From NCBI RefSeq assembly GCF_039555335.1, contig NC_092628.1:30165409-30229408 (forward strand): a stretch of 64,000 nucleotides of DNA. Direction: 5' to 3'. The position numbers and the translations under genes were made by a program. Shown here in pieces: positions 3,256-60,923 of this stretch. The stretch is from Amphiura filiformis (lineage: Eukaryota; Echinodermata; Ophiuroidea; Amphilepidida; Amphiuridae). How positions within the stretch are numbered: position 1 is the stretch's first letter; every line of letters begins with the position of its first letter. Below the pieces are notes generated by a model that had not been told where the DNA came from, did not search any database, and saw nothing but the letters and a program-made list of their open reading frames with translations.

Positions 3256-31865
<28,610 letters not shown>

Positions 31866-42300: not shown

Positions 42301-45300
42301 TATTCCCTGGTACAGGGTACGGATGTTAACAAGTAGTCCTTGTGGCAGTTTTTGGATCATTTTTCTAAAATGATCGATTTAATGTACAGAATTATACATG
42401 TACTACATTAATAAATTCTATTTAGTACTTCCAATATCCGTAGGCATCTACCTACTGGGTATTTGGCATGGGTTTATTTACCGATGTCCACTATGTAATC
42501 TGAATATAACTTTGGGCTTTCTTTTCCTTCTCTATATCTTAGGACCAAGAAGCCTATAATAAAGGGTGCGTTCAGATATTACTGGTACATTCCTTTGGCT
42601 ACTTCCAGACGAGCCATTATCAATGTTGTTTGGCAAACTGCTTTGTCCTTCGGTCTTCTCTTTCTCAAAAATAGCTTAACCTTTGCGAACCCTTCGCGAC
42701 AATCTCAGCTAATCTCAGATACTTTATAACGTGGTGACATTCATTTTGAAAGATGACAATCTATAAATCTATAATTCTACTTCCTTTCAAGAGAACACAA
42801 TTTAGACGATTGAATGAAGACGAAGATTATTTGTAATATGATTTCATTTCATTTCATTTCATTTCATTTCATTTCATTTCATTTCATTATTACCTCATAT
42901 CTAATCGAGAACATGAGAAAATATTGTAAAGGCCATTAAAGGTCCGTAACCCGATCGACAGCATCATCCCCCGATTTTTTCATTGTTGATGAGGTTTTGG
43001 TATCACATAATAGATACTATTTTTCTCATTACTATCCTGAAATTTGACGCTCCAAGTCGATGTATTTCCAGAGAAATCATCAATCACAGCGGTTTTTACA
43101 GGTATACCAGTTTGTAAACAATAAAAATTACTTCGGATCATGGGAAGAGAAAAAAGCGAACTACGCTAAGTGCTGAGGAGACGGTCCGCCGTATATAATT
43201 AAAACAATTCCTTGATTATTTCAGTTGTTGAAATAGCTCAATTGGCTAGCGCGCCGTTCTTTTACCCGCGAGGTACCCGGTTCAAAACCCGGTATCGGAA
43301 GGGTTTTTTCCTCTCCATTTTTAACCCAAACTTTTTATATTCATTTGAAATGTACATATTGCAAGGGGAAATATATTTTGTTTCCTTTTTTTCTGAAACG
43401 GTACGAAAAAACAAAAACAAACAAAAAAACAACAAATATTTTTCGTTCAATACGGACCGGGCATTGCAGCATGTCAGCATTCGTCATACGAACGGGAATT
43501 GTTGTTGTTGCATGCCTACCCAGAATGCAATTCACGTATACAAGGTATTGGATTGCAAATTTGGCTATTTATTCACATTTACGCTGAAAATGCTCTCGTT
43601 TTTCACAAAGCAGCATAAAGGGGAGATATTTGATATTATTATGTAATTTTAAAGACAATCCATATCCAAAACCAATAGGGTTACCCCTTTAATATACGCA
43701 TCTATGATCAAGTTTTTTGTGTCAATGCCTTCTCGGACTGTATTTATATTGGATGGTAATTTAAATCGATGGCCTAAATTGATATTTAGTGAACTTTATA
43801 ATATGAATTCAAATAACAATATGAGATGGAAGTGAAAGTGGATTCAGTCAATAGAAAATATATTGTATGATATAATGATATGGATTTTATGTTCAAAACA
43901 TACCTTGATAACAATAATGACGTGCCAATATAATATTGTGGTAGAAAATGCTTGTAAAAAAACTTCCTTAAACGATTATGTTCACAAGAATGTGCCTTCT
44001 CTAGAAAATTATCTTCTTGAGAAAATTTTCATTTATGGAGCCAGTTTGAAATTCAGAGCCCGCTCCAATACATTGTCGCTTGATAGGAAAGTAAGTATTT
44101 GAGATTGAACTATTTCTGCCATTTGTAGCCTTTGTACATGTTGTAATGATGGTCAAGAAGATGTTTTACATTTTATGTAAGGCATATAAAGATATCAGAA
44201 CTCATGAAATGAATAGCCTTAAATATTCACTTTGTAATGTAGGTTATACCTCAGTCCGGGCCTCAGTCTGAAACATTTCCATCAGTAGTGAATTGAATGC
44301 TCAAATGCATTTATCTTAGGTAGTAATGTTCTGTACTTCATGCGTATTACATTCATTCATTACAAGTATTGTAATTTGTAAAACATTTCTCAATGGGCTC
44401 ATGTCATTCTAGCTTATTATGTTCATAAATGTATTTGTCTTGAAGTCCTTGTTTGAGCTTGTAATTTTGCCATATAGGCCTATAATGAGTAATAGCTCAG
44501 AAAAGTGTTGTATATAGATAATGTATCAATTATGTATATATATTATTTAAAGTTCAATTTTTTTATTTTTCATCTAGGCCCTATATGTATATAGGGCCTA
44601 CTCCGGGCCAGGGAGGGAAATATATTTTGTGTATAAGGGAATTTTAAATAAGGGGAGGGGTATTCTTGACAGCGGGGAGGGGCGAGTGTTATTTAAGGGA
44701 GGGGCATATCAATTTGAAAGTGTAATAAATAAAATAAATCAATAAATTTAGCAAAGTTATAGTTCATTGAATCTACAACCATATGACAAAACAGGTGAAA
44801 ATAGTTAATGACATAAAATTTGAAAACTATTGTTAGGAACACTTGAGGTTTTGACTTTTAAAATTAAAACCTACATTTTGGTCAAAAATGTGCTTGGATA
44901 GGTAGTTTTCAACAGATTTACCACACTCGCCTTGCTATATAACATTGAATTGCGTTATCTGTTGACCTAATGACGAAAAGTGTTTTTAGGGGGAAGTGTA
45001 TAGCTTTCATTTGACATAAAAAAATTCTGATTGATGAAGGGAACACGTCTAGCAGGTAGTTTATCAATGCCAACATCTACTACTGATATGATAATAGCCC
45101 AGCAAACACAAAACGTTTTCGACATCATTCGCAAAAGGTTATAAAAGGTTGTCAGAAAACGTTTAAATGTCGGGTTATATAAAGGGTATATTAAGAGTAT
45201 AAAACGTTTCCATAACCTTAAAAAACATTTTTTGATAATCTACTGCTCAGTAAACAAAAATGTTTTACAGAAAACGTTAAAATGTCGGGTTATATAAAGG

Positions 45301-48300
45301 GTATAAAAACGTTTTAATAACATTCCAAAAACATTCTTGAAAACTTGATACAAAACATTCTAAACAGAATGTTATTTGGGGGTTGAAAAAATATTTTGTG
45401 AAACATGTTTGCCCAAAATATTTTCAATAACGTTTTATAAACGTTTTCATGACCTTTATATAACCCGACTTTTAAATGTTATTAAAAGGTTTTGATAAAA
45501 AAAACATTTTAAGAACATTTCTGTGTTGGCTGGGTTCAAATATTTTAACATAATGTTATTTAAGTATTGACACAATATTTGGCAAAAATGTTTGCAAAAA
45601 TAGTTTACAATTACATTTTTTGAAGACATTTAAAAATATTGTTGTAGTGTGTTTACATACAAAACGTTTTAATACGTTATCATGACCTTTAAATAACCCG
45701 ACATTTTAATGTTATTAAAACGTTTTTACCTCAACCAAAAGCCAAAATATAACCTATTTAAAACGTTTTTAAAACGTTTTGTGTTTGCTGGGAGTTTACA
45801 TGACATTTTACAGTCCCTTAAGGTACTAGGTATATCACAGAGTCAGCGAGAACGATGCGGGATTCGTACTGATACCAAAAAAGCATTTTTATTCCTCCTT
45901 TAACTTGTAACGCTAAGGGACCGTTCAACATTTACGTCAGGGATAGGTGAGCGTTGTAAGCGGGAATCTGAATTTTGGGTATTTTTTAACCTTTCGACAG
46001 TCATGTTAATGTCTAGGATTTATTCACAATTTTCAAAATATTAAAGATGGATGATTTTCCGTCAGGAAAGAAAAACGTTGTGATCTTATTATTAAGTATT
46101 CTAATAAAGAGCTTTGGGATTAGGACTCGCTAAATATTTTAGGCAGCGAGGTAGGTACCAGGATAAATCACACGGCTTGGTAGATGCGTCTTGGTTCACT
46201 CGTCTCGGCTAGTCCCTCAGATTGGTAGTTTCTTCATCGGCTATTCATCATAGATTTGGCATGGGCGCTAATAAAAAGCTCTCCATAGAACTAGAGGTTC
46301 GACCAGGGTCTTATTTAGGCTTTCAGACTCAGCCAAGCACGAATATTATCACACCAACATCAAGACAATCAAAACCACAATTTACTGATATTTAAGTTAT
46401 TTATTACCTTACTACATCTTCTTCATTTCGTATGAAACTTTATATTAAAACTAACAAGTGAACTGGGAATAGAACAAACTCCATTATCAAAGTAATAATT
46501 AGCGAGAATTATTCTCGCTCTAAACTAAGAAGTTGTGTCCAAGTCTTGACGCACACGGAGATTTTATAGACAGGTGTTATCTCTCTGAGTGACTGCTACA
46601 AGCTACAACTAAACCTCAGTTTGCGTCGTCCACAAGACCTCTGTTTACAAAAGACCATTGTGACGTTTTACGATAGTCTAATCGAAATGAAACGAGAGAG
46701 TGATTTTTCAGTCGGGGTGAATGACACCATAATTTTGATTAAATAAATAAATGAAAATAGAAGGGCACGGGATATAAAATAATATATCGCCACAACAGTA
46801 TTAATTTTCTATTTGCTCTTACAACCCATTCAGATCTTTATCTAATTCATATGCCAAACTGCCCTGATGGAACTACAAACCCAACCAAGACTCGACAAGA
46901 TACGTGGAGAGTGCTTCACGAAGCATACGAGCAGGGTTAGTGTAATATACTTTATACATCCTTGTCTTGTACATCTGTTTACAGTGATAAGATAATTTGC
47001 TATATAACGTGCGAGTATGGCCTATCCTATACATGCATCTACCTGACTCTTCATACATCTGTGTTAACTGAATTGTAAACATGAGTTGCCATTAAAAGGG
47101 CTTTCGTGATCCACCCACTTTTTTCAAAAAAAGTTGAGATTTTTATACGACTGGAAACCTCAGCTGGGTACATATATGGAAAAGTAGTCTCTTTTGCTCA
47201 AATAAAAGGGGTCCCACAGTTAAGCAATGGGAGAAAATTGTCTTTTTTCTCTTTCAACTTCAATTATTATGAAGGGAAAGTCTTTAATTTTTTGGCTCAC
47301 TCTTATTTGTCTCAAGTATATATTAAACTTTACTTTCCCCGATTTTCAAGGAAATCTGATGAAAGACCTCGTCGTACAGGAGCACTAAACACGGCAAGGT
47401 ATTCCCAAAATCTCACTCGATTTACAGCGAAATACACTGACATGCACCCCATGTCATTAAAGTAGCGTGCTATAGACGGCCCTCATGTTGATAATAGAAA
47501 GTCCGATTGACTTGGCTTAAACGGTATTTGCTAGAAATACTTTGCCAGATTCTACTCTCTAAAAAGGAATCTGATTGGTTACAAAGTGCCGTCGTACTGT
47601 AGGAAAAACCATACCCTCTTCCGTACAGCCCTGCTTAGTGTGAGCTAGTGTGTTGTGTGGTAATGTATGCATTGTGCATTGACCTCGAACGCCTCTGTAC
47701 ACACAGCGTGCACACACTGGAGTCGAGTATAATTTATTTAAAGAGACTTTCATAGGAAAACTTTTCCATATCTTGCAGATTATTCGTTTAGCAAAAATAT
47801 CGTCAAATGATTTGAATTTCGTTTTGGTATACCAGAACGAAATTACAACACTGGCCTATGGAGCAGTGTAATACACATAATCAGGCAGAACTCGCAAACT
47901 CAAAATCGGAATCAACTGAAATTTTGGGAATAAGCTTTTTCGTGAATATCTACTGAAAAATGTCATAAAAAGAGGATGCTAGGATCACGAAATACTCCTT
48001 TAATGTTTTTCCAAAGCCTATACATTCTCACTACCGGTGTTAACCAATACCTGAAGGGGCATATCAATTCTGTCAAATCTACGAACAAGTAGTACACTTT
48101 TATCTAGGAGCCCAGTTAATTTTAGTTAATATTACCGTAAATTAGACTTGATCAAATAAACTAGATGTAGATAATACAGCTCATATTAATAACACTATAG
48201 GCTGTAGGCAAGTATAGTGACTGAAAGACAATAATTCCTTTGGTCTTCACTATAGGTATATGTAAATCAATAGGCGTGAGTAACTATGACGTACGGCATC

Positions 48301-51300
48301 TGGAAGAACTTCAAACCATGCAAGTTGTGCCTCACGTTAACCAGGTGTGTAACATTGGGTTAAGGGGGTACTACACCCCTGTGGTATATTTGTGACTATT
48401 TTTGCATTTTCTCAAAAATAATAACACACTGGTAACAAAAGTTATGTATATTATTGGGGCAAGGAATCAATTACTACACTGAAATTTCAGTGACTCAAGA
48501 CAAGCGGTTCAGTATAATATGATAGGAAATAAGGTACATCCTAGCAGTACCTTATTTCTTATCATAAATACCAAACCGCTTGTCTTGGGTCACTGAAATT
48601 CCAATGTAGTAATTGGATTTCTTCCCTTATAATATACATAACTTTTGTTACCAGTGTGTTATTAGTTTTGAGAAAATGCAAAAATAGACACAAATTTATC
48701 GAGGTGTAGTACCCCTTAATACATTTAAACTCCACACTCCCCGTATGGAAGATGTTTGAAATACGAATTTGAATAGCATTAGCACATTAGCCAAATCTAT
48801 ATGAAACCCATTCTCCTCGATATGGAAGAGTCATGTTGAATCTTTCTCAGAGGGCGTTTGAAATTCAACAGTGTACTTCGGTTATATCTATAAATGCGCT
48901 TTTATAAATACGCACGTGACCCATGGGCACGACATACCAAGACCAGCAAGCGTGACCAAATCCTCATGCATTGACCACTATACAGAAAGGGATAGGAACT
49001 CTGTAGATAAATATTATCAAATTTAAGTATTTATTGAATTGCAAAATTATTACACATTTTGCAATTCCGAATTTGTAATATGTTATCAAAAACAACATTT
49101 TGAAAGTATTTGACGACGGAAAATATATTCAACGACCGACACGTTTAGAATATAATCACAAAGTTGAACAAAATAGACAATTTTGCTGCACAGCAGTCTA
49201 ATGTTGTTCCGCCTTTGCATTCAATTGTATAGAAAGACCACTCGTTATGTAGAAGGACATTTCGAGACTTACCGTCTATAGCTGTTATGGCAGCGCGGAG
49301 GTGGTCACGTGCGTGTTTATAAAAGCGCATTTATATATATGTGACGTTGCATGTCAAAAGGGGACACTTTTGGACTCTCAACATTGTCAATAATATTTTT
49401 AAAGGCCGATATCTCAATTTCTAATTTTATAATACCATAACTTACGACCTCAATATCTTCGCTTAGGAATGTCCGATTTCATTGGGGAAAACGGCATTGT
49501 GGAGCAAAATATCCCTATATTTAAGATATGTACAAACCTCAAAATTGATAACCTGCCCAAAAGTGTCTCCTTTTGACATGACACGTCACATATAACCAAA
49601 GTACACCGTTCAAAAGGAGCTGCTTTAGGTGTTCATCCCACACGAAATTCATACTCCGTCTGTGGAAGAAAATCATGCACAAGGGTAGTGTGGACTTTAA
49701 AATGAGTAGATCGTTTTAATCCTTTTCAAAAAAATGACATTTTTGGAACGCTTGCGTGTAAATAACAGAAAACTGTCACCCCCTCTCCCCCGTGCAATGT
49801 TGAGAAATGCCAATGTCTTCAGCGGTTCCCCAATGTGTTCCAACATTGCTTGATGGGGAGAGGGGAAGGGTGAATCATTGTTGTAGATGTCATGTTTCTT
49901 CCCAAACACAATATAGGTCATTTCCATGAACATAAGAAATTCTGCACGGAATTTTGACAGAGTGTGCCAAGCGTTCCAAGGACTTTTTTCCTTGATTGTC
50001 TCTACCGAATGCAAAATATTTCATCTAAATTTCGTTTTTGTCTCATAACTCAAAAACGGAATGTCGTATGAGCTTCAAATTTCACACGATTTGAGAGTGG
50101 ATTATATACTTTGCAATCATAATAAAATTGTTGATAACGAATTTGGTTTATTTAGGGAGTGGTCACCGAAAACACCCCATATGCTAAATTACACACGTTT
50201 CATAATTATGGCTCTAAACTGCTCTAAAATGTCATTTGTGTCCATAACTCAAAAACAGGATGTTGTATGAGCTTCATATTGCACACGATTTGAGAGGGGA
50301 TTATATGCTTTGCAATCATAATAAAATTGTTGATAAAGAATTTGGTTTATTTAGGGAGTGGTCACTGAAAACACCCCATATGCTAAATTACACACTTTTC
50401 ATAATTATGGCTCTAAACTGCTCTAAAATGTCGATTTTGTCCATAACTCAAAAACAGAATGTTGTATGACCTTCATATTGCACACGATTAGAGAGTAGAT
50501 AATATCCTTTTGAATCATGATAAAATTGTTGATAAAAATGTTGAGTTATTTAGGGAGTGGTCACTGACAACACCTCCTATGCTAAATTACACAAGTTTTG
50601 TAATTATGGCCCTCTTCTGTATGATACTGAGTCAATTTTCGTTTTTGTCTCATAACTCAAAAACACTACAAATGCATTTTTCGTACAATATCACAATGTT
50701 TTGCAGCATGTTTTCCAAAAAAAATTTTAAATGTTATTAAAACATTATGTACCCTTTATGATATAACCTGACGTGTAAAATTTATGTTTTCTCTAAAACT
50801 TGTGTTTGCTGAGTATAGGCACATCCGAGCGAATCAGAAAGATTATGATGTAACAATTTGAAACAACTCATTTCTGAATATTATTTATAACAAAATACGC
50901 TTTTGCGATGAGAAAAAAATAAAAGAAAAAAAAACGAAACAACAATTTAATACACTTAAAGAAAAAATATAGACCACCATTGGGACTCGAACCATGCACA
51001 TCAGTCAATAGCCAAAAAGTTAACAGTCGGAGGACTAATCCGCTACGCCACGCTGCCATTGCACAAACGAAGTAACAAGTTTTGTTCTTTTATAGTAGTC
51101 AGGTATCGGGAAAGTGTAAACTTGTATAGTAGAAATGGCAAAGTGTATCAGTTTACCATAATGACAAAATGGTCCAAAATCGACATTTTATGTTTTGAGG
51201 CCGCATCTCATGACGCGTCACGTTCGTTTACATGTGCTATACCAATTGAGCATGTTTTAATGCAAAAGGAATGTCACCTTTATTTCTTCTATGAAATTTG

Positions 51301-54300
51301 TTAACACTTTACCATTTTGAATTGAAATAAATATATATACAATTTCTTTCAATACAAAATGAAAATACTATAAAAGAACACAACTTGTTACTTCGATTGC
51401 GAAATGGCAGCGTGGCGTAGCGGATTAGTCCTCAGACTGATAACCTTTTGACTATTGACCGATGTGGTTCGAGTCCCATTGGTGGTCTTTTTAAAAGTAT
51501 ATTCAATTGTTGTTTTCGTTTTTCTTTTCTTGTTTTTTTTTTCTCATCGCAAAAGCGTATTTTAATAAATAATATCAGAAATGAGTTGTTTATGCGTATT
51601 TATTTCAATTCAAATTGGTAAACTTAACTGTTAACAAATTTTATATATGAAACGAATGTTTCATTCCTTTTGCAATAAAACATGTTCAATTGGTAGAGCA
51701 AATGTAAACGAACGTGACGCTTCGTGAGATGCGGCCTAAAAACATAAAATGTCGATTTTGGACCATTTTGTCATTATGGTAAACTGATACATTTTGAGGT
51801 TTCTACTATAGGGTGCTTGCATGGAAGATCACAAAGTTCAAACCATCCTAAAGACACGCTCCAGAGGACGTGCAAATGCACGGAGTACAATACCAATCAC
51901 CTGTTTAACTGCTTTTGATCAAAGTAATTCTTTGTACTCCATGCATTAGCATATCTTATGGAGCGTGTCTGGAGGATGATTTGAACTCATGACCTTTCGT
52001 GCAAGCACTCTATACAAGTTTACACTTTCCCCGATACCTGACTACTATAAAAGAACAAAACTTGTTACTTCGATTGCGAAATGGCAGCGTGGCGTAGCGG
52101 ATTAGTCCTCAGACTGATAACCTTTTGACTATTGACCGATGTGAATGGTTCGAGTCCCAGTGGTGGTCTTTTTTAAAAGTATATTCAATTGTGTTTTTTT
52201 TTTCGTGTTTTTTCTCATCGCAAAAGCGTGTTTTAATAGAAATAATATTCAGAAATGAGTTGTTTCAAATTGTTACATCATAATCTTTGTGATTCGCTCG
52301 GATATGCCTATACTCAGCATACACAAGTTTTCCAGAAAACATTTATATAAGCCTATACTCAGCAAACACAAGTTTTAGAAAAAACATTTACATGTTGGGT
52401 TATATCATAAAGGGTACAAAATGTTTGAAGTTTTAATAACATTGAAAATATTTTGGAAACATGCTGCAAAACATTGTGATATTGTAAAAAATGTATTTGT
52501 AGTGTTTTTGAGTTACGAGACAAAAAAAATTTGACTACAGTAGAGGGCATAATTATGAAACTTGTGTAATTTAGCATAGGAGGTGTTTTCAGTGACCACT
52601 CCCTTAATAACCCAACATTTTTATTAACAATTTTATTATGATTCAAAAGGATATTATCTACTCTCAAATCTGGTGCAATATGAAACTCATACAACATTCT
52701 GTTTTTGAGTTATGGACAAAAACGGCATTTTAGAGCATTTTAGAGCCATGATTAAGAAACGTGAGTAATTTAGCATAGGGGGTGTTTCCAATGACCACTC
52801 CTTAAATAAACCAAATTCTTTATCAACCATTTTATTTTGATTACAAAGCATATAATCCACTCTCAAATCGCGTGCAATATGAAGCTCATACAACATTCTG
52901 TTTTTGAGTTATGGACACAAATGACATTTTAGAGCAGTTTAGAGCCATAATTATGAAACGTGTGTAATTTAGCATATGGGGTGTTTTCTGTGACCACTCC
53001 CTAAATAAACCAAATTCGTTATCAACAATTTTATTATGATTGCAAAGTATATAATCCACTCTCAAATCGTGTGAAATTTGAAGCTCATACGACATTCCGT
53101 TTTTGAGTTATGACACAAAAACGAAATTTAGATGAAATATTTTGCATTCGGTAGAGACATGTTAACCTTTTGACTATTGACCGATGTGAATGGTTCGAGT
53201 CCCAGTGGTGGTCTTTTTTTAAAAGTATATTCAATTGTGTTTTTTTTTCGTGTTTTTTCTCATCGCAAAAGCGTGTTTTAATAGAAATAATATTCAGAAA
53301 TGAGTTGTTTCAAATTGTTACATCATAATCTTTGTGATTCGCTCGGATATGCCTATACTCAGCATACACAAGTTTTCCAGAAAACATTTATATAAGCCTA
53401 TACTCAGCAAACACAAGTTTTAGAGAAAACATTTACATGTTGGGTTATATCATAAAGGGTACAAAATGTTTGAAGTTTTAATAACATTGAAAATATTTTG
53501 GAAACATGCTGCAAAACATTGTGATATTGTAAAAAATGTATTTGTAGTGTTTTTGAGTTACGAGACAAAAACGAAATTTGACTACAGTAGAGGGCATAAT
53601 TACGAAACTTGTGTAATTTAGCATAGGAGGTGTTTTCAGTGACCACTCCCTTAATAACCCAACATTTTTATTAACAATTTTATTATGATTCAAAAGGATA
53701 TTATCTACTCTCAAATCTGGTGCAATATGAAACTCATACAACATTCTGTTTTTGAGTTATGGACAAAAACGGCATTTTAGAGCATTTTAGAGCCATGATT
53801 AAGAAACGTGAGTAATTTAGCATAGGGGGTGTTTCCAATGACCACTCCTTAAATAAACCAAATTCTTAATCAACCATTTTATTTTGATTACAAAGCATAT
53901 AATCCACTCTCAAATCGTGTGCAATATGAAGCTCATACAACATTCTGTTTTTGAGTTATGGACACAAATGACATTTTAGAGCAGTTTAGAGCCATAATTA
54001 TGAAACGTGTGTAATTTAGCATATGGGGTGTTTTCTGTGACCACTCCCTAAATAAACCAAATTCGTTATCAACAATTTTATTATGATTGCAAAGTATATA
54101 ATCCACTCTCAAATCGTGTGAAATTTGAAGCTCATACGACATTCCGTTTTTGAGTTATGAGACAAAAACGAAATTTAGATGAAATATTTTGCATTCGGTA
54201 GAGACAATCAAGGAATAAAGTCTTGGAACGCTTGCGTGTAAATAACAGAAAACTGTCACCCCTCTCCCCGTGCAATGTTGAGAAATGCCAATGTCTTCAG

Positions 54301-56357
54301 CGGTTCCCCAATGTGTTCCAACATTGCTTGATGGGGAGAGGGAAGGGTAAATCATTGTTGTAGATGTCATGTTTCTTCCCAAACACAATATAGGTCATTT
54401 CCATGAACATAAGAAATTCTGCACGGAATTTCGACAGAGTGTGCCAAGCGTTCCAAGGACTTTTTTCCTTGATTGTAGGTACCGCCATAGTCGAACGCCT
54501 TAACGATTGAGCTAACTTGACTGACTATTGAGCTAACTTGACTGACTTCAAACTGATTGAAGTTTGCAAAAACTGATTGAAGTTTGCATGTCCCTCATCA
54601 TACACCGTACATAAGCAACACCTGGTATAATTTTGTTTATACTTCATATTCAAATAAAATCAAATGTTCATAATTTGTGTTGAATATCGATAACTGGAAT
54701 TTAAATGACAAAACTATTCGGAGTTGCGAAAATATTTGATAAGGCGATGACAAACAAACCCCTGTTCTTCGGGCCCGACTGATTTCGTTTTGTTATATAG
54801 GCCTACAGCCGTTTTAAGCCGAAGTTTGATTTTGGCTAATAAATTACTAGTAAAACAAGTTCAGGAAGTTTACAATATGTTTGCAAATAATGTCTTTCAA
54901 GCTAAGTGTGATTTTTAGGGTAAATAGTCTCTTCCCGAAAACCAATTCCCGACCGACTCACCCCAATTGACAAGTCCATCCGCCCGTAAAAAAGTTTTTT
55001 TAACGATATTTTTCTCACCTTCAGATAGAGTATCATCCATTCCAAGATCCTAATAGAGATGTTATCAAGTACTGTAAGGCAAACAACATAGTTCTTCAGG
55101 TAATATACCAAGTCTGATACATATTTATTTTATGAAATTCAGGTATAGCGTTTGTGATATTGTTTATCATATTTGTGATTATAAGAGTGTGGACCTTACG
55201 TGTGGGCTAGGAGAAAAATCACTATCCTTTTTTACTTTATCGAATAACCTGTGGCTTTTTATAAATAGGCATACTCTCCATTTTGTGCGGGAAAAGCAGT
55301 CTCCCATCCTGAAATCATCAAGGTTGCCCAAAAGAACAAACGTACACAAGGACAAGTTATACTACGGTGGATCATCCAGGTAAAAAAAAAATTTACATAG
55401 TATTCTATACAGGGCCTTCAAAGTGGCTCTCGTATGAAAAAGGATTGGACTACTGAAATGAACTTAAGGGACGTACCATTAGATTCTCAGGTGGGGGTAG
55501 GAAGTTTTGAAAAAAAAAACTTCACCCACTACATGAGCAAAAAAAAAATTATGTGATAATTTGTTTGAATTGTTTTGAATTAAAATATATCACAGTCACC
55601 CTGAAAATAAACAATAAATCGAACGTATGGGGTTTTTTTCAGCACGGTATCGTTCCAGTTCCCAAAACAGCAAAAGTTGAGCGAGCCAAGGAAAATTCAA
55701 CAGTGAGTACTAATTCTCTCCTTCTCAATCTTTACATTTACATGATTTTTCTTGAGAGGGGGAAATCGTTTTGATATAATTATTAGCTTTAACTCAAGAA
55801 CAGCAAGACTATGAAGATATGCAAATACAATTATTGGGTTTCTTGACTCATTTCCTATCAGATTCAATGTATTCATGTCAAGAAATACACTGCAGTTTTA
55901 GTTTTATTTAAATGGCTAAAACTTGAAATACCGTAAAACCTCGTCTACAAGCATATAGAGTGCCTGTGATAAGATAAAAGCTAAATTATTCCAGGCACCA
56001 TTATGGATTTTGAGCAAATAAATTACAGATCCAAGCATATACAAACAAGTATTATTGTAAGACCAATCTATTGTTTTGGAATATTTACACTTGTTTCGTA
56101 TTAATTTAGCTTTCATCAAAAACACTAAACGAGGTTTTACGGTATGGCCCCTGCCATCCCATTCGCCGTAAGTCATAATTATTTTACACTATCTGTTCAT
56201 AAATCAGGTATATACTTGTTTCATTGAATTGATGATTTTATTCATGTTTTATCAACAGATTTTTGACTTCCAGCTTTCCAAAGAAGACATGGATGCAATG
56301 GACAATATTCACAAAGATTCCTTTCATACACTTAACCCTTTCAAAGATGTTCCATAA
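36340..56357 (+). CDS. Aldo-keto reductase, complete 8-exon gene (281 aa)
   Basis: Exons 36340-36397, 37052-37303, 46834-46935, 48256-48344, 55025-55099, 55269-55379, 55643-55702 and 56259-56357 join in frame to 846 nt (281 codons plus stop), all with GT-AG borders. The family is NADPH-dependent reductases of aldehydes and ketones, cytosolic (known). Catalytic set: Asp46 (LVDTA), Tyr51 (IYGTE), Lys76 (TTKLW) and His109 (LIHMP). GVSNY and VNQIEYHP are family signatures. The NADPH 2'-phosphate site appears as PKT...ER..EN (Lys237, Arg243, Asn247). The start MPIPTVKLSNGVLMPAIGIG matches the usual N-terminus. Length (about 280) fits the short AKR type rather than the roughly 315-residue AKR1 type, whose C-terminal loop is absent here. 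Substrate cannot be told from sequence. No sign of decay. Introns 2 and 4 are large and full of repeats. Confidence 0.95.
36703..36875. mobile_element. hAT-type element relic
   Basis: The right end CATAGCTACGCCACTG matches the end of the hAT element at 2444-2820; the left end is degenerate (GGCTTAGCTAGACTGGGCGC). Confidence 0.5.
37052..37303 (+). CDS. AKR exon 2: catalytic Asp, Tyr, Lys
   Basis: Acceptor attttatag, donor TCG|gtaagt, 252 nt, phase 1 in and out. Contains GMRLVDTAAIYGTEKNVGKA and DFFITTKLWF. Confidence 0.96.
38400..39118. repeat. 37-bp minisatellite, about 19 copies
   Basis: Unit TAGCAGGTAGTTTATC, then (T/A)ATTCCCACATCTACTGCTGA. Left copies are diverged and uneven; the last six (from about 38895) are near-identical, showing recent expansion at the right end. 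A single detached copy sits at 45054-45090. Confidence 0.95.
39128..39382. repeat. Cluster of short TTATTCCGAAGGGTC repeats on both strands
   Basis: About 13 copies of a roughly 18-base word. The left copies read TTATTCCGAAGG and the right ones CCTTCGGAATAA, so the cluster folds on itself around 39300. Confidence 0.88.
39979..40221. mobile_element. Palindromic MITE (243 bp)
   Basis: Ends GGGTCATTCCAGTTGTAATT and TTCAACTGGAATAGCCC are inverted. The centre contains AATTCACGCTCCCTGTATG with its complement in duplicate. Confidence 0.85.
40368..40655 (-). CDS. Unassigned candidate coding exon (95 codons) in AKR intron 2
   Basis: A strong acceptor (gatttttctacag) is followed immediately by ATG and 95 open codons to TAA. 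The product is rich in aromatic and charged residues (start MLGNEYQYPAESLPYPGWEK, middle KRGDVVIPKWAFDSTGY). Composition is more protein-like than the surroundings. I do not recognise the family. It could be the terminal exon of a gene nested antisense to the reductase, or a relic. No partner exon was found between 40656 and 46833. Confidence 0.4.
   Translation of the reverse strand: MLGNEYQYPAESLPYPGWEKFYVPFDVSQLTTNMTKVQYHSSLIMHTSSKVIVERKCERASKHDKDVVTKRGDVVIPKWAFDSTGYCRFKKDINV
42838..42888. repeat. (ATTTC)n microsatellite
   Basis: About ten perfect ATTTC units. Confidence 0.97.
43222..43303 (+). other. tRNA-like sequence (Lys-type anticodon region)
   Basis: AATAGCTCAATTGGCTAGCG is an A-box-like D arm and CCCGGTTCAAAACCCGG a perfect T stem-loop. 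TTCTTTTACC could present a TTT anticodon. The acceptor strands GTTGAAA and ATCGGAA do not pair, so it is probably tRNA-derived. Confidence 0.5.
45108..45792. mobile_element. CCCAGCAAACAC inverted-repeat element, copy 1 (685 bp)
   Basis: Ends CCCAGCAAACACAAAACGTT and AACGTTTTGTGTTTGCTGGG are exact inverted repeats. Internal AACGTTTT and TATATAACCCGACATTTAA words recur in both orientations. No gene. The opposite-orientation copy is at 60233-60923. Confidence 0.92.
46834..46935 (+). CDS. AKR exon 3: catalytic His
   Basis: Acceptor acccattcag, donor GCAGG|gttagt, 102 nt. The split codon G|AT gives Asp of VDLYLIHMP, with the catalytic His. Followed by RQDTWRVLHEAYEQG, the family's 'TW..ME...' helix. 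Confidence 0.95.
46936..48255. other. AKR intron 3 (1.3 kb)
   Basis: No repeat family or exon recognised. An open frame at 47106-47465 has no recognisable domain and is taken as chance. Confidence 0.5.
48256..48344 (+). CDS. AKR exon 4: GVSNY signature
   Basis: Acceptor cttcactatag, donor AACCAG|gtgtgt, 89 nt, phase 1 in and phase 0 out. Reads ICKSIGVSNYDVRHLEELQ and VPHVNQ. The donor is followed after 15 nt by a TTAA-flanked MITE. Confidence 0.95.
48364..48715. mobile_element. Palindromic TTAA-type MITE, copy B (352 bp)
   Basis: Begins GGGGGTACTACACCCC and ends GGTGTAGTACCCC, flanked by TTAA at 48360-48363 and 48716-48719 (the piggyBac-type target). Halves pair along nearly the whole length, including AAGACAAGCGGTT and its complement. 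Lies 15 nt past the AKR exon 4 donor. Confidence 0.92.
48869..49608. mobile_element. CAGT-ended MITE with 5-bp duplication, copy 1, hosting a nested MITE
   Basis: Ends CAGTGTACTTCGGTTATA and TATAACCAAAGTACACCG. Flanked by TTCAA on both sides. A copy of the TGACGTG MITE occupies 49340-49592 inside its right arm. Confidence 0.85.
49340..49592. mobile_element. TGACGTG MITE, copy 2 (internally deleted, nested)
   Basis: Ends GTGACGTTGCATGTCAAAAGG-like and GACATGACACGTCACAT. The middle matches 19850-20040. Confidence 0.88.
49717..49999. mobile_element. ACAATCAAGG-ended MITE, copy 1
   Basis: The right end CCAAGGACTTTTTTCCTTGA ends TTGT at 49999; the left end is degraded. Same orientation and about 95% the same as 54204-54476. 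Confidence 0.85.
50040..50680. repeat. 199-bp tandem repeats in the left arm, about 3 copies
   Basis: Unit contains CATAACTCAAAAACGGAATG, GATTTGAGAGTGGATTATAT and TTTAGGGAGTGGTCACCGAA. Each copy has a similar 69-codon frame, but 199 is not a multiple of 3 and the frames have no recognisable domain. Confidence 0.9.
50971..51060 (-). other. tRNA-Asn-like module (left arm)
   Basis: Minus strand GTGGCGTAGCGGATTAGTCC (A box), CGACTGTTAACTTTTTGG (GTT anticodon region) and GGTTCGAGTCCC (B box). Flanking stems do not fully pair. Confidence 0.6.
51402..51487 (+). other. tRNA-Asn-like module (centre)
   Basis: GTGGCGTAGCGGATTAGTCC ... GTGGTTCGAGTCCCATTGGT. Anticodon region changed to GACTGATAACC. Confidence 0.6.
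51810..52013. mobile_element. Small MITE within the right arm (about 204 bp)
   Basis: Ends GGGTGCTTGCATGGAAGATC and GACCTTTCGTGCAAGCACTC are inverted and flanked by TATA. The left arm lacks it, giving an empty-site comparison. Confidence 0.8.
52080..52169 (+). other. tRNA-Asn-like module (right arm)
   Basis: Near-copy of 51402-51487 with GATGTGAATGGTTCGAGTCC. The same module's 3' half reappears at 53160-53215. Confidence 0.6.
53160..54203. repeat. Right arm, second copy: about 1.04-kb direct duplication of 52117-53158
   Basis: From GTTAACCTTTTGACTATTGA to GCATTCGGTAGAG it repeats the preceding kilobase with few differences, including three 199-bp units. The junction falls inside the tRNA-like module. 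Confidence 0.93.
54204..54476. mobile_element. ACAATCAAGG-ended MITE, copy 2 (273 bp, complete)
   Basis: About 32-bp inverted ends: ACAATCAAGGAATAAAGTCT and CCAAGGACTTTTTTCCTTGA ending in TTGT. No gene. Confidence 0.9.
54479..54540 (-). other. tRNA-like A-box fragment
   Basis: Minus strand AGTTAGCTCAATCGTTAAGG then CGTTCGACTATGGCGG, a D-arm-like start cut off by the MITE; the GAGCTAACTTGACTGAC part is duplicated. Confidence 0.45.
55025..55099 (+). CDS. AKR exon 5
   Basis: Acceptor ctcaccttcag, donor CTTCAG|gtaata, 75 nt, phase 0. Reads IEYHPFQDPNRDVIKYCKAN and NIVLQ, continuing the VNQ of exon 4. Confidence 0.95.
55269..55379 (+). CDS. AKR exon 6
   Basis: Acceptor tataaatag, donor ATCCAG|gtaaaa, 111 nt, phase 0. 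Reads AYSPFCAGKAVSHPEIIKVA and then RTQGQVILRWIIQ, the family's 'AYSP' and 'QV.LRW' blocks. Confidence 0.95.
55643..55702 (+). CDS. AKR exon 7: NADPH-binding
   Basis: Acceptor tttttttcag, donor TCAACA|gtgagt, 60 nt, phase 0. Reads HGIVPVPKTAKVERAKENST; Lys, Arg and Asn of PKT....ER..EN are the NADPH 2'-phosphate contacts in characterised AKRs. Confidence 0.95.
56259..56357 (+). CDS. AKR exon 8: C-terminus
   Basis: Acceptor tatcaacag, 32 codons then TAA at 56355-56357. Reads IFDFQLSKEDMDAMDNIHKD and ends PFKDVP. No canonical AATAAA is evident within the next 100 bases. Confidence 0.94.
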   Translation: MFDFQLSKEDMDAMDNIHKDSFHTLNPFKDVP

Positions 56358-57558: not shown

Positions 57559-58179
57559 TTAGATCATGTGCAAAGGTTATCCCTGGAGGACACTTTAGGA
57601 CATTTTCGTGCCTATTAAAGGAACATCTCGATTTCATTGCATGATTTTTCTAATGATCATGAACCATTAACTCAGAGTTCAAAACAATAATTTTTATAGT
57701 TCATGATCATTAGCAAAATCATGTAATGAAATCAAGGCGTTTCCCTCAAATAAGTAGCTCGATGAAACATCCTTAGTGGGTATGCTAGACCTGTTTTAGT
57801 ACTTATTATTAGACTTTTAGCCATGTTAGCCCAATAGACATGATAGAAGACATTTTTTACTTGTTATTAAGCCTGTTTTCTGGCGCCAAGGATATCTGCG
57901 AAATTTAAATCGGGTTCTTGTTTTACAATGTTTAAATCCAATCATCTTACAACATGGTACAAAATGTTATGCTTTGCTTCTTACTGAGTTGATATTACGC
58001 TTCAGGTTGTTTACAATCGTAGTGTTATTATTATTACGACAAGTTATCCTTTATGACATCTTTGACTGAGCTCGGATTGTGATGAATTGTTGATCGTGTT
58101 TCTCTTTCTTCCCAACATTTTCTTATGGTTGTACCCTATATTTTTGCTTTCATTTCCCAAAGTCACAAATTAGAGAGTA

Positions 58180-59379
58180 CAGGGAGTCCCAGAAAAAATT
58201 ACCGGGCGAATGAATTTGAACGTAAGTCGAGAAATAGATATCAGAATCCACCAATCTAAACATCAGCGTGTAGCCCATCTTATTCTGCATCTTATACGCC
58301 AAATTTACTGGAATCGGTTGACTGATTGCGAAGAAATGGGCGATTACATAACGCATGTGTCAATTTACTTCATTCCAAGTTTGAAAGTTTCAACACAATG
58401 CGCACTAGTGGTTAACTGTCTATGCAATGGGCTTCATATTTTGTTCTGTGAAATCCTTTTTGTTTTAAACAATCTGTTTCTTGCAAAGCATTTAGTTCGG
58501 TTTTGTTCAAATTCGAAAACCTGCACGATATTGAAAATGAAAGCTTGCATGTAAGATTGTGCTCGGTACTTGTAAATATATTTTTTCATTAATGTTGACA
58601 TAAATGTTGCATAAAGAATTATTGCATAGAGAATTTCAGCTAGCTTAAAAATTTTCTCACATAGGGTATATTGCTGATCCATTAATTATCCTTTTCTGGT
58701 GCATTGTGGGATTGAAAAAGGGGCAAATCGATCGCTAATTTGCTCCCTTTTCTATCCCACAATGCACCAGAAAAGGATAATTAATGGATCAGCAATATAC
58801 CCTATACATTAATGTTTGTGGAATATTTCCAAGAAATTGTAAAGCAAAGTTTAAATCTTTTAAAACTTCAACATTAATGTTGCATGGTATCAAAATCACA
58901 CGTAAAGCTGTAAGCACTTGAACATTGTCATTCTTGGCTCAAATGTTCTTTGGAAAGTTAAAATATAACATATTTGGCAACTTAAAGAATTAAAGTTGGA
59001 AAGCTTCCAATATTGCAGAAAACATAGTTTTCTCGGACAAACTATTATTCATCTTCAGTGAAAGCATGAATAACATAACACCATCGGATTATAAAATAGA
59101 TTATGTGGACTAAATTTAATGAGATACTCAAACTTTAGGAAGCGGTGAGCGAGTATGAAAAAAGCGCCTGTTGATCAAACTTGGAATGAATTGCATTAAT
59201 GCGCTCATTATGTAATCGTTAATTTCTTCGCAACCAGTCAACCAAATCAAATAACATTTTTGTATACGATGCACAATAGAATAGGCTATGCGCTACATTT
59301 TTAAATTTTTGATTCTGATGTCTATTTCTCGACTTACGTTCAATTTTATTCACTCGGTAATTTTTTATGGGACACCCTG
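58180..59379. mobile_element. Tc1/mariner-type 1.2-kb non-autonomous element
   Basis: Ends CAGGGAGTCCCAGAAAAAAT and ATTTTTTATGGGACACCCTG, flanked by TA on both sides. Inverted homology continues about 130 bp inward (CGTAAGTCGAGAAATAGATA and complement). No transposase recognised. Confidence 0.88.
58661..58805. repeat. 145-bp palindrome with perfect 52-bp arms
   Basis: Arms 58661-58712 and 58754-58805 are exact reverse complements (start ATAGGGTATATTGCTGATCC). The 41-base loop pairs further with mismatches. Nested inside the mariner-type element. Confidence 0.96.
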
Positions 59380-59427
59380 TATAACGTTTTAAGACAAACT
59401 TAATAATTGGAAGATGTATTCCATAAC

Positions 59428-60085
59428 CAGTATGCTTCGACTATATTTATAAATACGTACACATACGCACGTGACCACCTCTGCGCTGCCATAATAGCTT
59501 GTAGACAGTAAGTCTCGAGGTGAGCTTCATATTCGGACCCCCCCCCCTGTGTAATAATTTTGCTATTCAACTAATACATGAATTTGATGATATTTATCTA
59601 AAGATTTTCTATCCTTTTCAATGGCATGGGCATTTGTGACGTGGTATATCGAAAGCAGATTTTTTCACAATTTGGGTTTGTTGCGAATTTGTGATGTTAT
59701 TAATGTTTAAAATATTGTCTGATAGTTTCAGACCGGAATATAACTGGCATCTTGTATTTTTGAGGTAATTTTTCAAGGTAATTCCTACTCTCAACAATGT
59801 CAATAATATGTTTAAAGGCCGATATCTCAATTTCTAATTTTATAATACCATACCTTACAAACTCAATATCTTCGCTTAGGAATGTCGGATTTCATCAGGA
59901 AAAACGGAGTTGTGGAGCAAAATATATTTCTTTAAGATATGTAAAAAACTTAAAATTGATAACCTGTTTTGACATGACACGTCACATTTGGTGACGCTTA
60001 ACGCTTGCTGGTTTGGGTATGTCGTGCCCATGGGTCACGCGCGTACTTATAAATACGTATTTATAGATATAGTCGAAGCATACTG
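59428..60085. mobile_element. CAGT-ended MITE with 5-bp duplication, copy 2, hosting a nested MITE
   Basis: Ends CAGTATGCTTCGACTATA and TATAGTCGAAGCATACTG are exact inverted repeats. Flanked by ATAAC on both sides. The nested TGACGTG MITE is at 59635-59988. Confidence 0.9.
59635..59988. mobile_element. TGACGTG MITE, copy 3 (nested)
   Basis: Right end GACATGACACGTCACATTT intact, left end degraded (TGTGACGTGGTATATCG). Body matches 19700-20040. Confidence 0.85.
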
Positions 60086-60232: not shown

Positions 60233-60923
60233 CCCAGCAAACACAAAAACGTTTTAAAAACATTTTAAATAAGTTATATTTTGGCTTTTGGTTTAGGTAA
60301 AAACGTTTTAATAACATTAAAATGTCGGGTTATATAAAGATCATGATAACGTTTTAAAACGTTTTGTATGAAAACACACTACCACAATATTTTTAAATGT
60401 TTTCAAAAAATGTTATTGTAAACTATTTTTGCAAACATTTTTTCCAAATATTGTGTCAATACTTAAATATTATTATGTTAAAATATTTGAACCCAGCAAA
60501 CACAGAAATGTTCTTAAAATGTTTTTTTCAAAACCTTTTAATAACATTTTAATGTCGGGTTATATAAAGATCATGAAAACGTTTTTAAAACGTTATTGAA
60601 AATATTTTGGGCAAACATTTTTCGCAAAATATTTGTTCAACTCCCAAAATAACATTCTGTTTAGAATGTTTTGTATCAAGTTTTCAAGAATGTTTTTGGA
60701 ATGTTATTAAAACGTTTTATACCCTTTATATAACCCGACATTTAAACGTTTTCTGTAAAACATTTTTGTTTGCTGAGCAGTAGATTATCAAAAATGTTTT
60801 TAAGGTTATGAAAACGTTTAATACTCTAAATATACCCTTTATATAACCCGACATTTAAACGTTTTCTGACAACCTTTTATAACCTTTTGCGAACGATGTC
60901 GAAAACGTTTTGTGTTTGCTGGG
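60233..60923. mobile_element. CCCAGCAAACAC inverted-repeat element, copy 2 (691 bp)
   Basis: Reverse complement of 45108-45792, with TA on both sides. An internal CCCAGCAAACACAGAAATG at about 60494 suggests the element was built by one copy inserting in another. Confidence 0.92.

What the first reader, a model, noticed from the sequence alone, without database searches (positions are those of the whole stretch)
49717..54476. 4.8-kb inverted and tandem repeat block with tRNA-Asn-like modules
A left arm (199-bp repeats, CAGCAAACAC-like end, T/A tract, tRNA-like module) is mirrored on the right. The right arm is itself duplicated in tandem (about 1.04 kb), with its junction inside the tRNA-like module. 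MITEs in the same absolute orientation cap both outer ends. The whole lies in AKR intron 4 and a transcript could form a kilobase-long duplex. This is the most unusual architecture in the window and may be a composite transposable unit not yet described.
Basis: partly seen in the sequence, partly recalled or inferred. Interest (0 to 1): 0.75.

Follow-up and report, generated by a model that had tools for sequence, protein, structure and literature searches.

The report
Rearranged foldback-like repeat in intron
An animal gene's intron holds a stretch of DNA with long mirror-image, internally repeated arms, built like an already known kind of mobile DNA, and the sequence suggests that its odd extra copies come from recent mis-copying during DNA repair.

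Summary
The block is real. Two inverted arms (50003-51350 and 51578-54200) hold 199-bp tandem repeats, a CAGCAAACAC-type fragment, a T/A tract and tRNA-like modules; 1,045 bp of the right arm is duplicated in tandem, and two copies of one MITE cap the ends in the same orientation. The plan resembles foldback elements such as Tetris and Galileo. I do not file it as a member: no target-site duplication bounds the block, and other copies could not be sought in the host genome.

The odd features are young. The outer 300 bp of the left arm, the two MITEs and the two right-arm copies differ from their counterparts by 2/300, 2/254 and 6/1044, against 65/697 in the rest of the arms. The left MITE's inner end looks like a chimera of the right MITE's two ends. 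I read this as template switching at the right MITE's terminal repeat, so no composite transposon is needed. Assembly error in the young copies is not excluded. The modules have Pol III-type boxes but pass no tRNA test, and Asn is not their best match.

The parts
49743..50002 (+). Left MITE A; outer 19-22 bases of its 5' terminal repeat absent; inner end reads GATTGT-CTC-TACCG
   Evidence: 2 mismatches of 254 against the right copy, 3 internal single-base gaps
50003..51350 (+). Left inverted arm
49981..50296 (+). Young outer tract of the left arm (with 20 bases of MITE end), pairs with 53907-54222
   Evidence: 2 of 300 sites differ from right copy B, change point at 50297; 314 predicted pairs
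50036..50610 (+). 199-bp tandem repeats of the left arm, 2.9 copies
50695..50820 (-). Fragment of a CAGCAAACAC-ended element in the left arm
   Evidence: 73-75% like 45246-45359 and 60665-60777
50973..51057 (-). tRNA-like module of the left arm; TATA-like box at 51094-51087, T6 four bases after the end
   Evidence: A and B boxes, sequence
51351..51577 (.). Middle domain, with a further copy of most of the tRNA-like unit (unit 51366-51591)
51406..51487 (+). tRNA-like module of the middle domain
51578..53159 (+). Right inverted arm, copy A (includes MITE 2)
51811..52009 (.). MITE 2, flanked by CTATA (51806-51810 and 52010-52014); empty site in the left arm
   Evidence: alignment; hairpin z -10.6 for 51811-52013
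52083..52168 (+). tRNA-like module of the right arm; TATA-like box at 52046-52053, T6 after the end
52548..53129 (+). 199-bp tandem repeats of right copy A, 2.9 copies
53160..54204 (+). Tandem copy B of the right arm, starts inside the tRNA-like module
   Evidence: 6 mismatches of 1044 against copy A; junction
53548..54176 (+). 199-bp tandem repeats of right copy B, 3.2 copies
54201..54479 (+). Right MITE A with both terminal-repeat ends, TA on each side
   Evidence: terminal repeat about 35 bp, 30 matches, 4 mismatches, 1 gap; hairpin z -7.7

Best explanation
This is an old, non-coding, foldback-like element: long inverted arms with internal 199-bp tandem repeats, a middle domain, and tRNA-like modules in both arms and the middle. 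It was rearranged recently. Shown by sequence: the outer 300 bp of the left arm, the two MITE A copies and the two right-arm copies have the same low divergence (0.6-0.8%), while the rest of the arms differs by 9.3%. Inferred: a break or stalled fork near the inner end of the right MITE A was repaired by copying. One product annealed inside the tRNA-like module at an imperfect 4-base match (AGAC) and copied the right arm again, giving the 1,045-bp tandem duplication. Another used the left arm's inverted homology, copied the outer 300 bp, switched between the two terminal repeats of the right MITE (shared ACAATCAAGGAA) and copied the MITE backwards, which gives the same absolute orientation, the chimeric inner end and the missing outer end of the left MITE. 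Whether this was one event or several is unknown. An RNA hairpin in the host intron is predicted; an effect of it is not shown.
For: Divergence 2/300 (outer left tract against right copy B), 2/254 (MITEs), 6/1044 (right copies), not distinguishable (Fisher p 0.66-1.0), against 65/697 in the inner arms (p 1e-8 for the outer tract, 2e-7 for the MITEs); change point at 50297 reached by 0 of 1000 shuffles. Chimeric inner end of the left MITE: GAG as in the right MITE's 5' end, AAAAAAGTCC as in its 3' end. The duplication junction GGTAGAGACA/TGTTAACC runs into the MITE end. MITE 2 has an empty site in the left arm, so the arms are older than it. Foldback plan and template switching at such arms are described (passages).
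Against: No target duplication found around the block; no second copy in 64 kb, and no genome to search. The chimeric end rests on about five informative columns. The AGAC match at the junction is imperfect (an extra A, and T for A). Divergence of 0.6-0.8% is also what two alleles might show, so mis-joined haplotypes could mimic the young copies. Equal divergence does not prove one event.
Confidence: 0.55

Rival explanations
1. MITE A inserted twice independently, at the same TA site of each arm (CGGTACCG), in the same orientation by chance; gene conversion between the arms evened out their outer 300 bp, and the tandem duplication is a separate event.
For: Both MITE inner ends abut the same arm sequence with TA (GCATTCGG-TA and TA-CCGAATGC), and the right outer flank also reads TACCG. 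Conversion between inverted arms is expected.
Against: Needs a repeat hit at one site; the left MITE lacks its outer end and TA; its inner end differs from the right MITE's outer 3' end (CTC against AGG).
Confidence: 0.2
2. A circular DNA made of the arms plus one MITE A recombined into a solitary MITE A here, or the locus is one unit of a tandem array, which leaves the arms between two MITEs of the same orientation.
For: Joining the two inner flanks at the TA would give a perfect palindrome GCATTCGGTACCGAATGC with a MITE of symmetric ends (read); explains orientation and MITE similarity.
Against: Does not by itself explain the 300-bp tract or its sharp edge; no circle or array is seen.
Confidence: 0.12
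3. Assembly or library artefact: the young copies are mis-joined alleles or chimeric reads.
For: Young copies differ by only 0.6-0.8%, with single-base gaps in homopolymers.
Against: Does not touch the old arms: 9.3% divergence and a MITE with a 5-bp duplication on one side only. The junctions join unlike sequences, and substitutions separate the copies.
Confidence: 0.12
4. One reading: two MITE A copies carry the arms between them as one mobile unit.
For: MITE A at both outer ends.
Against: No target duplication found around the block; the left outer end is incomplete; no second copy in the window.
Confidence: 0.06

Closest known systems
Tetris, foldback transposon of Drosophila virilis (PMC4079207; abstract and passages seen)
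   Same: Long terminal inverted repeats (up to 1,735 bp) with an outer domain of about 220-bp tandem repeats, inner domain, variable middle, no apparent coding capacity.
   Different: Tetris has structurally complete copies with target duplications and a long flanking domain shared with the MITE DAIBAM in inverted orientation; here a MITE caps both ends in one orientation, tRNA-like modules lie in the arms, and no target duplication was found. Sequence similarity was not tested.
Galileo of Drosophila mojavensis and D. willistoni (PMC3573991, PMC4168063; passages seen)
   Same: Long arms with internal tandem repeats (about 210 or 140 bp), unequal repeat numbers between arms, inserted elements in arms, chimeric copies without matching target duplications.
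   Different: Galileo is placed by its transposase in the P superfamily; here no transposase is seen and the superfamily is unknown.
FB4 and the FoSTeST / gap-filling models (PMC8277862; passages seen)
   Same: Foldback arms with tandem duplications ascribed to stalled forks and template switching with microhomology.
   Different: That paper treats captured host sequence; here the copied pieces are the element's own arm and a neighbouring MITE, and the switch is inferred between two MITE ends.
TU elements of sea urchin (cited in PMC4079207 as a sea urchin foldback; details recalled)
   Same: Foldback plan with tandem repeats in the arms (recalled).
   Different: Recalled repeat unit is far shorter; not compared.

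Membership tests
Foldback-like DNA elements | Long terminal inverted repeats | tested here: met
   Arms about 1.35 kb
Foldback-like DNA elements | Internal tandem repeats in the arms | tested here: met
   199-bp units in three arm copies
Foldback-like DNA elements | Target-site duplication bounding the element | tested here: not met
   Outer flanks read by eye: no direct duplication around the block; the MITEs at the ends hide the arms' own ends
Foldback-like DNA elements | Dispersed copies in the genome | not testable with these tools
   No genome held; no other copy of the 199-bp unit in the window
Foldback-like DNA elements | Related transposase source | not tested
   Only two mechanical ORFs of 110 aa or more overlap the block (114 and 116 aa); not searched
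Composite transposon bounded by MITEs | Intact outer ends with target duplication | tested here: not met
   Left MITE lacks its outer end
tRNA gene | Accepted by a tRNA finder or the Rfam tRNA model | tested here: not met
   ARAGORN 0 in the window and 0 with introns allowed in 49200-55000; two hits at a lowered threshold lie elsewhere; Rfam none
tRNA-type Pol III promoter | A box, B box and T-run in order | tested here: met
   3 full modules among 5 pattern matches in 64 kb, mean 0.4 in 20 single-base shuffles; T-runs read
tRNA-Asn | Nearest to tRNA-Asn | tested here: not met
   Asn scores 18-19.5 (z 3.1-3.8), Thr 30-34 and Leu-TAA 29.5-30.5; recalled human-like probes. The left module does share CTGTTAAC with Asn.

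The most novel reading that the evidence does not exclude
The element's arms carry a working Pol III cassette as an integral part: in each arm the tRNA-like module points to the outer end, with a TATA-like box 37 bases upstream and a T-run after it, so the element may make its own small structured RNAs while its inverted arms give long double-stranded RNA from the host intron.
Probability: 0.1. Interest if true: 0.55.

Novelty: new variant of a known kind. Interest (0 to 1): 0.3.

Why it matters
If right, it is a readable single-locus record of how foldback arms grow, and of MITE ends acting as switching points in repair, including a MITE copied in the unexpected orientation by a switch between its own ends. 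It also warns that MITEs capping a repeat block are not proof of a composite transposon. The predicted hairpin lies in a host intron, so an effect on the AKR transcript can be tested.

Tried and rejected
Rejected: tRNA-Asn identity (Thr and Leu-TAA score higher). Rfam matches mir-559 (23.8 bits, cut-off 95) at 51858-51964 and mir-4660 (19.4, cut-off 87) at 49778-49865 fall on the hairpins of MITE 2 and MITE A and are taken as chance. Wholesale artefact, for the old arms. The two mechanical ORFs over the block (114 and 116 aa) were taken as chance and not searched.

Led nowhere: seven exact-pattern scans for other copies, 0 matches each (genome contigs; viral contigs). These collections hold prokaryotes and viral contigs, so a null says little about the animal. 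A literal search for the CAGCAAACAC motif gave 170 papers; the 20 listed looked off topic by title. Literal searches for tRNA-like or Pol III parts in foldback or MITE elements listed no such case: 40 papers with 20 listed, 0, 2 and 1; I opened one from those lists (PMC4079207) and one paper that one search also lists (PMC3573991). That is not proof of absence in print. sought foldback or Rehavkus papers. Four papers were seen as passages only.

Not done: no read data, no small-RNA data, no relatives of the host, no identification of the species. The composition profile was not used.

Full report
What is there. The longest inverted repeat of the window is 49981-50611 with 53592-54222 (631 nt, 95%), the next is nearly the same left arm with 52545-53159 (615 nt, 95%), and 16 of 23 inverted pairs listed lie in this block. 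With gaps the left arm runs from 50003 to about 51350 and the right arm from about 51578 outwards. Each arm copy has about three 199-bp units; the motif CATAACTCAAAAAC recurs at their borders and occurs at 10 places in the window, all in this block. Inward follow a fragment of a CAGCAAACAC-ended element, a T/A tract and a tRNA-like module. Two complete elements of the CAGCAAACAC family lie at 45098-45792 and 60233-60923, in opposite orientation, 661 of 689 aligned sites alike.

The duplicated right arm. Copies 52115-53159 and 53160-54204 differ at 6 of 1044 aligned sites. The junction reads GGTAGAGACA then TGTTAACC. Its left part runs up to six bases into MITE A as parsed here, and its right part starts inside the tRNA-like module, where AGAC precedes TGATAACC; the match is imperfect (an extra A, and T for A). 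If GAGACA is MITE sequence, the duplication came after the MITE insertion.

The MITEs. Right MITE A (54201-54479) has both ends of a terminal repeat of about 35 bp, TA on each side, and a hairpin z of -7.7 against 30 single-base shuffles. Left MITE A (49743-50002) is the same sequence in the same orientation: 2 mismatches in 254 aligned sites, three internal single-base gaps. It starts at TTGGAACG, without the outer 19-22 bases. Its inner end reads GAG next to the arm, like the right MITE's 5' end, and AAAAAAGTCC further in, like the right MITE's 3' end. MITE 2 (51811-52009) sits only in the right arm between two CTATA copies; the left arm shows the empty site.

Ages. In a three-way alignment of the arms, left against right copy B shows 2 differences in the outer 300 ungapped sites and 65 in the next 697; the change point at 50297 was reached by 0 of 1000 shuffles. 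The outer tract, the MITE A pair (2 of 254) and the right-arm pair (6 of 1044) are not distinguishable (Fisher p 0.66-1.0). The outer tract and the MITE pair each differ from the inner arms (p 1e-8 and 2e-7); the right-arm pair was not put to that test. Gapped sites were left out. So the arms are old, and the features that make the block look odd are young. Similar divergence does not prove one event.

How it most likely arose (inferred). A break or stalled fork near the inner end of right MITE A was repaired by copying. One product annealed within the tRNA-like module and copied the right arm again. Another used the left arm's inverted homology, copied the outer 300 bp, switched at ACAATCAAGGAA from one MITE end to the other, and copied the MITE backwards until it stopped short of the outer end. 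This fits the orientation, the chimeric inner end, the missing outer end and the similar ages. It was built after seeing them and is not an independent prediction. Rivals are two independent MITE insertions plus gene conversion, a circle of arms plus MITE recombining into a solitary MITE, and an assembly artefact of the young copies.

The tRNA-like modules. Modules at 50973-51057 (-), 51406-51487 (+) and 52083-52168 (+) have an A box, a B box and a T5-T6 run at or within four bases of the end; TATAAAAG lies 37 bases upstream in all three; a fourth at 53160 is cut. An A-B pattern search gave 5 matches in 64 kb, 3 of them these, against a mean of 0.4 in 20 single-base shuffles. ARAGORN and Rfam do not accept them. 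Against nine recalled tRNAs, Asn ranks 6th or 7th (z 3.1-3.8) and Thr first, tied with Leu-TAA for the left module. Transcription is untested.

Host context. AKR exon-like matches lie on the same strand on both sides; one is significant (E 4e-8) and the others are weak but in gene order. Pfam gives Aldo_ket_red for 3 of 4 exon pieces (E 3.5e-12, 0.00076, 0.012; only the first above the curated cut-off). As RNA, 49981-54222 folds with a 314-pair stem between its ends and 1,256 left-right pairs; this is a predicted minimum-energy fold without shuffle control.

Comparison. Tetris has arms up to 1,735 bp with about 220-bp tandem repeats and a variable middle (passages). Galileo has arms with about 210-bp or 140-bp repeats in unequal numbers, inserted elements, and chimeric copies without matching target duplications (passages). 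FB4 copies carry tandem duplications ascribed to template switching (passages). The present block is built like these. I do not file it as a member, since no target duplication was found and copies could not be sought. It is a variant of a known kind with a partly readable rearrangement history.

Noticed in passing
45098-45792 and 60233-60923: Two copies of a roughly 690-bp CAGCAAACAC-ended inverted-repeat element with many AACGTTTT-like repeats, 96% alike, in opposite orientation, flanked by AG/AG and TA/TA.
   Followed up: partly
49376-49593, 19842-20056, 59787-59987: A repeat just left of the block recurs twice in the window (94% and 84%).
   Followed up: no
10195-12091: An RVT_1 reverse-transcriptase ORF (10316-11617) flanked by 122-nt inverted repeats that are 99% complementary.
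   Followed up: no
4362-7352 (-): A 996-aa open frame with endonuclease and reverse-transcriptase domains, LINE-like and apparently long intact.
   Followed up: no
32229 (-) and 43234 (+): Two further A-box/B-box pattern matches, possibly SINE heads.
   Followed up: no
54482-54530 (-): Right flank reads like the 5' part of a tRNA-derived sequence (TTAGCTCAATCGTTAAGGCG); seen by eye only.
   Followed up: no
24385-24941, 58178-59381: Other sizeable inverted repeats (153 nt at 88% with a 19-nt spacer; 207 nt at 77% with a 790-nt spacer).
   Followed up: no
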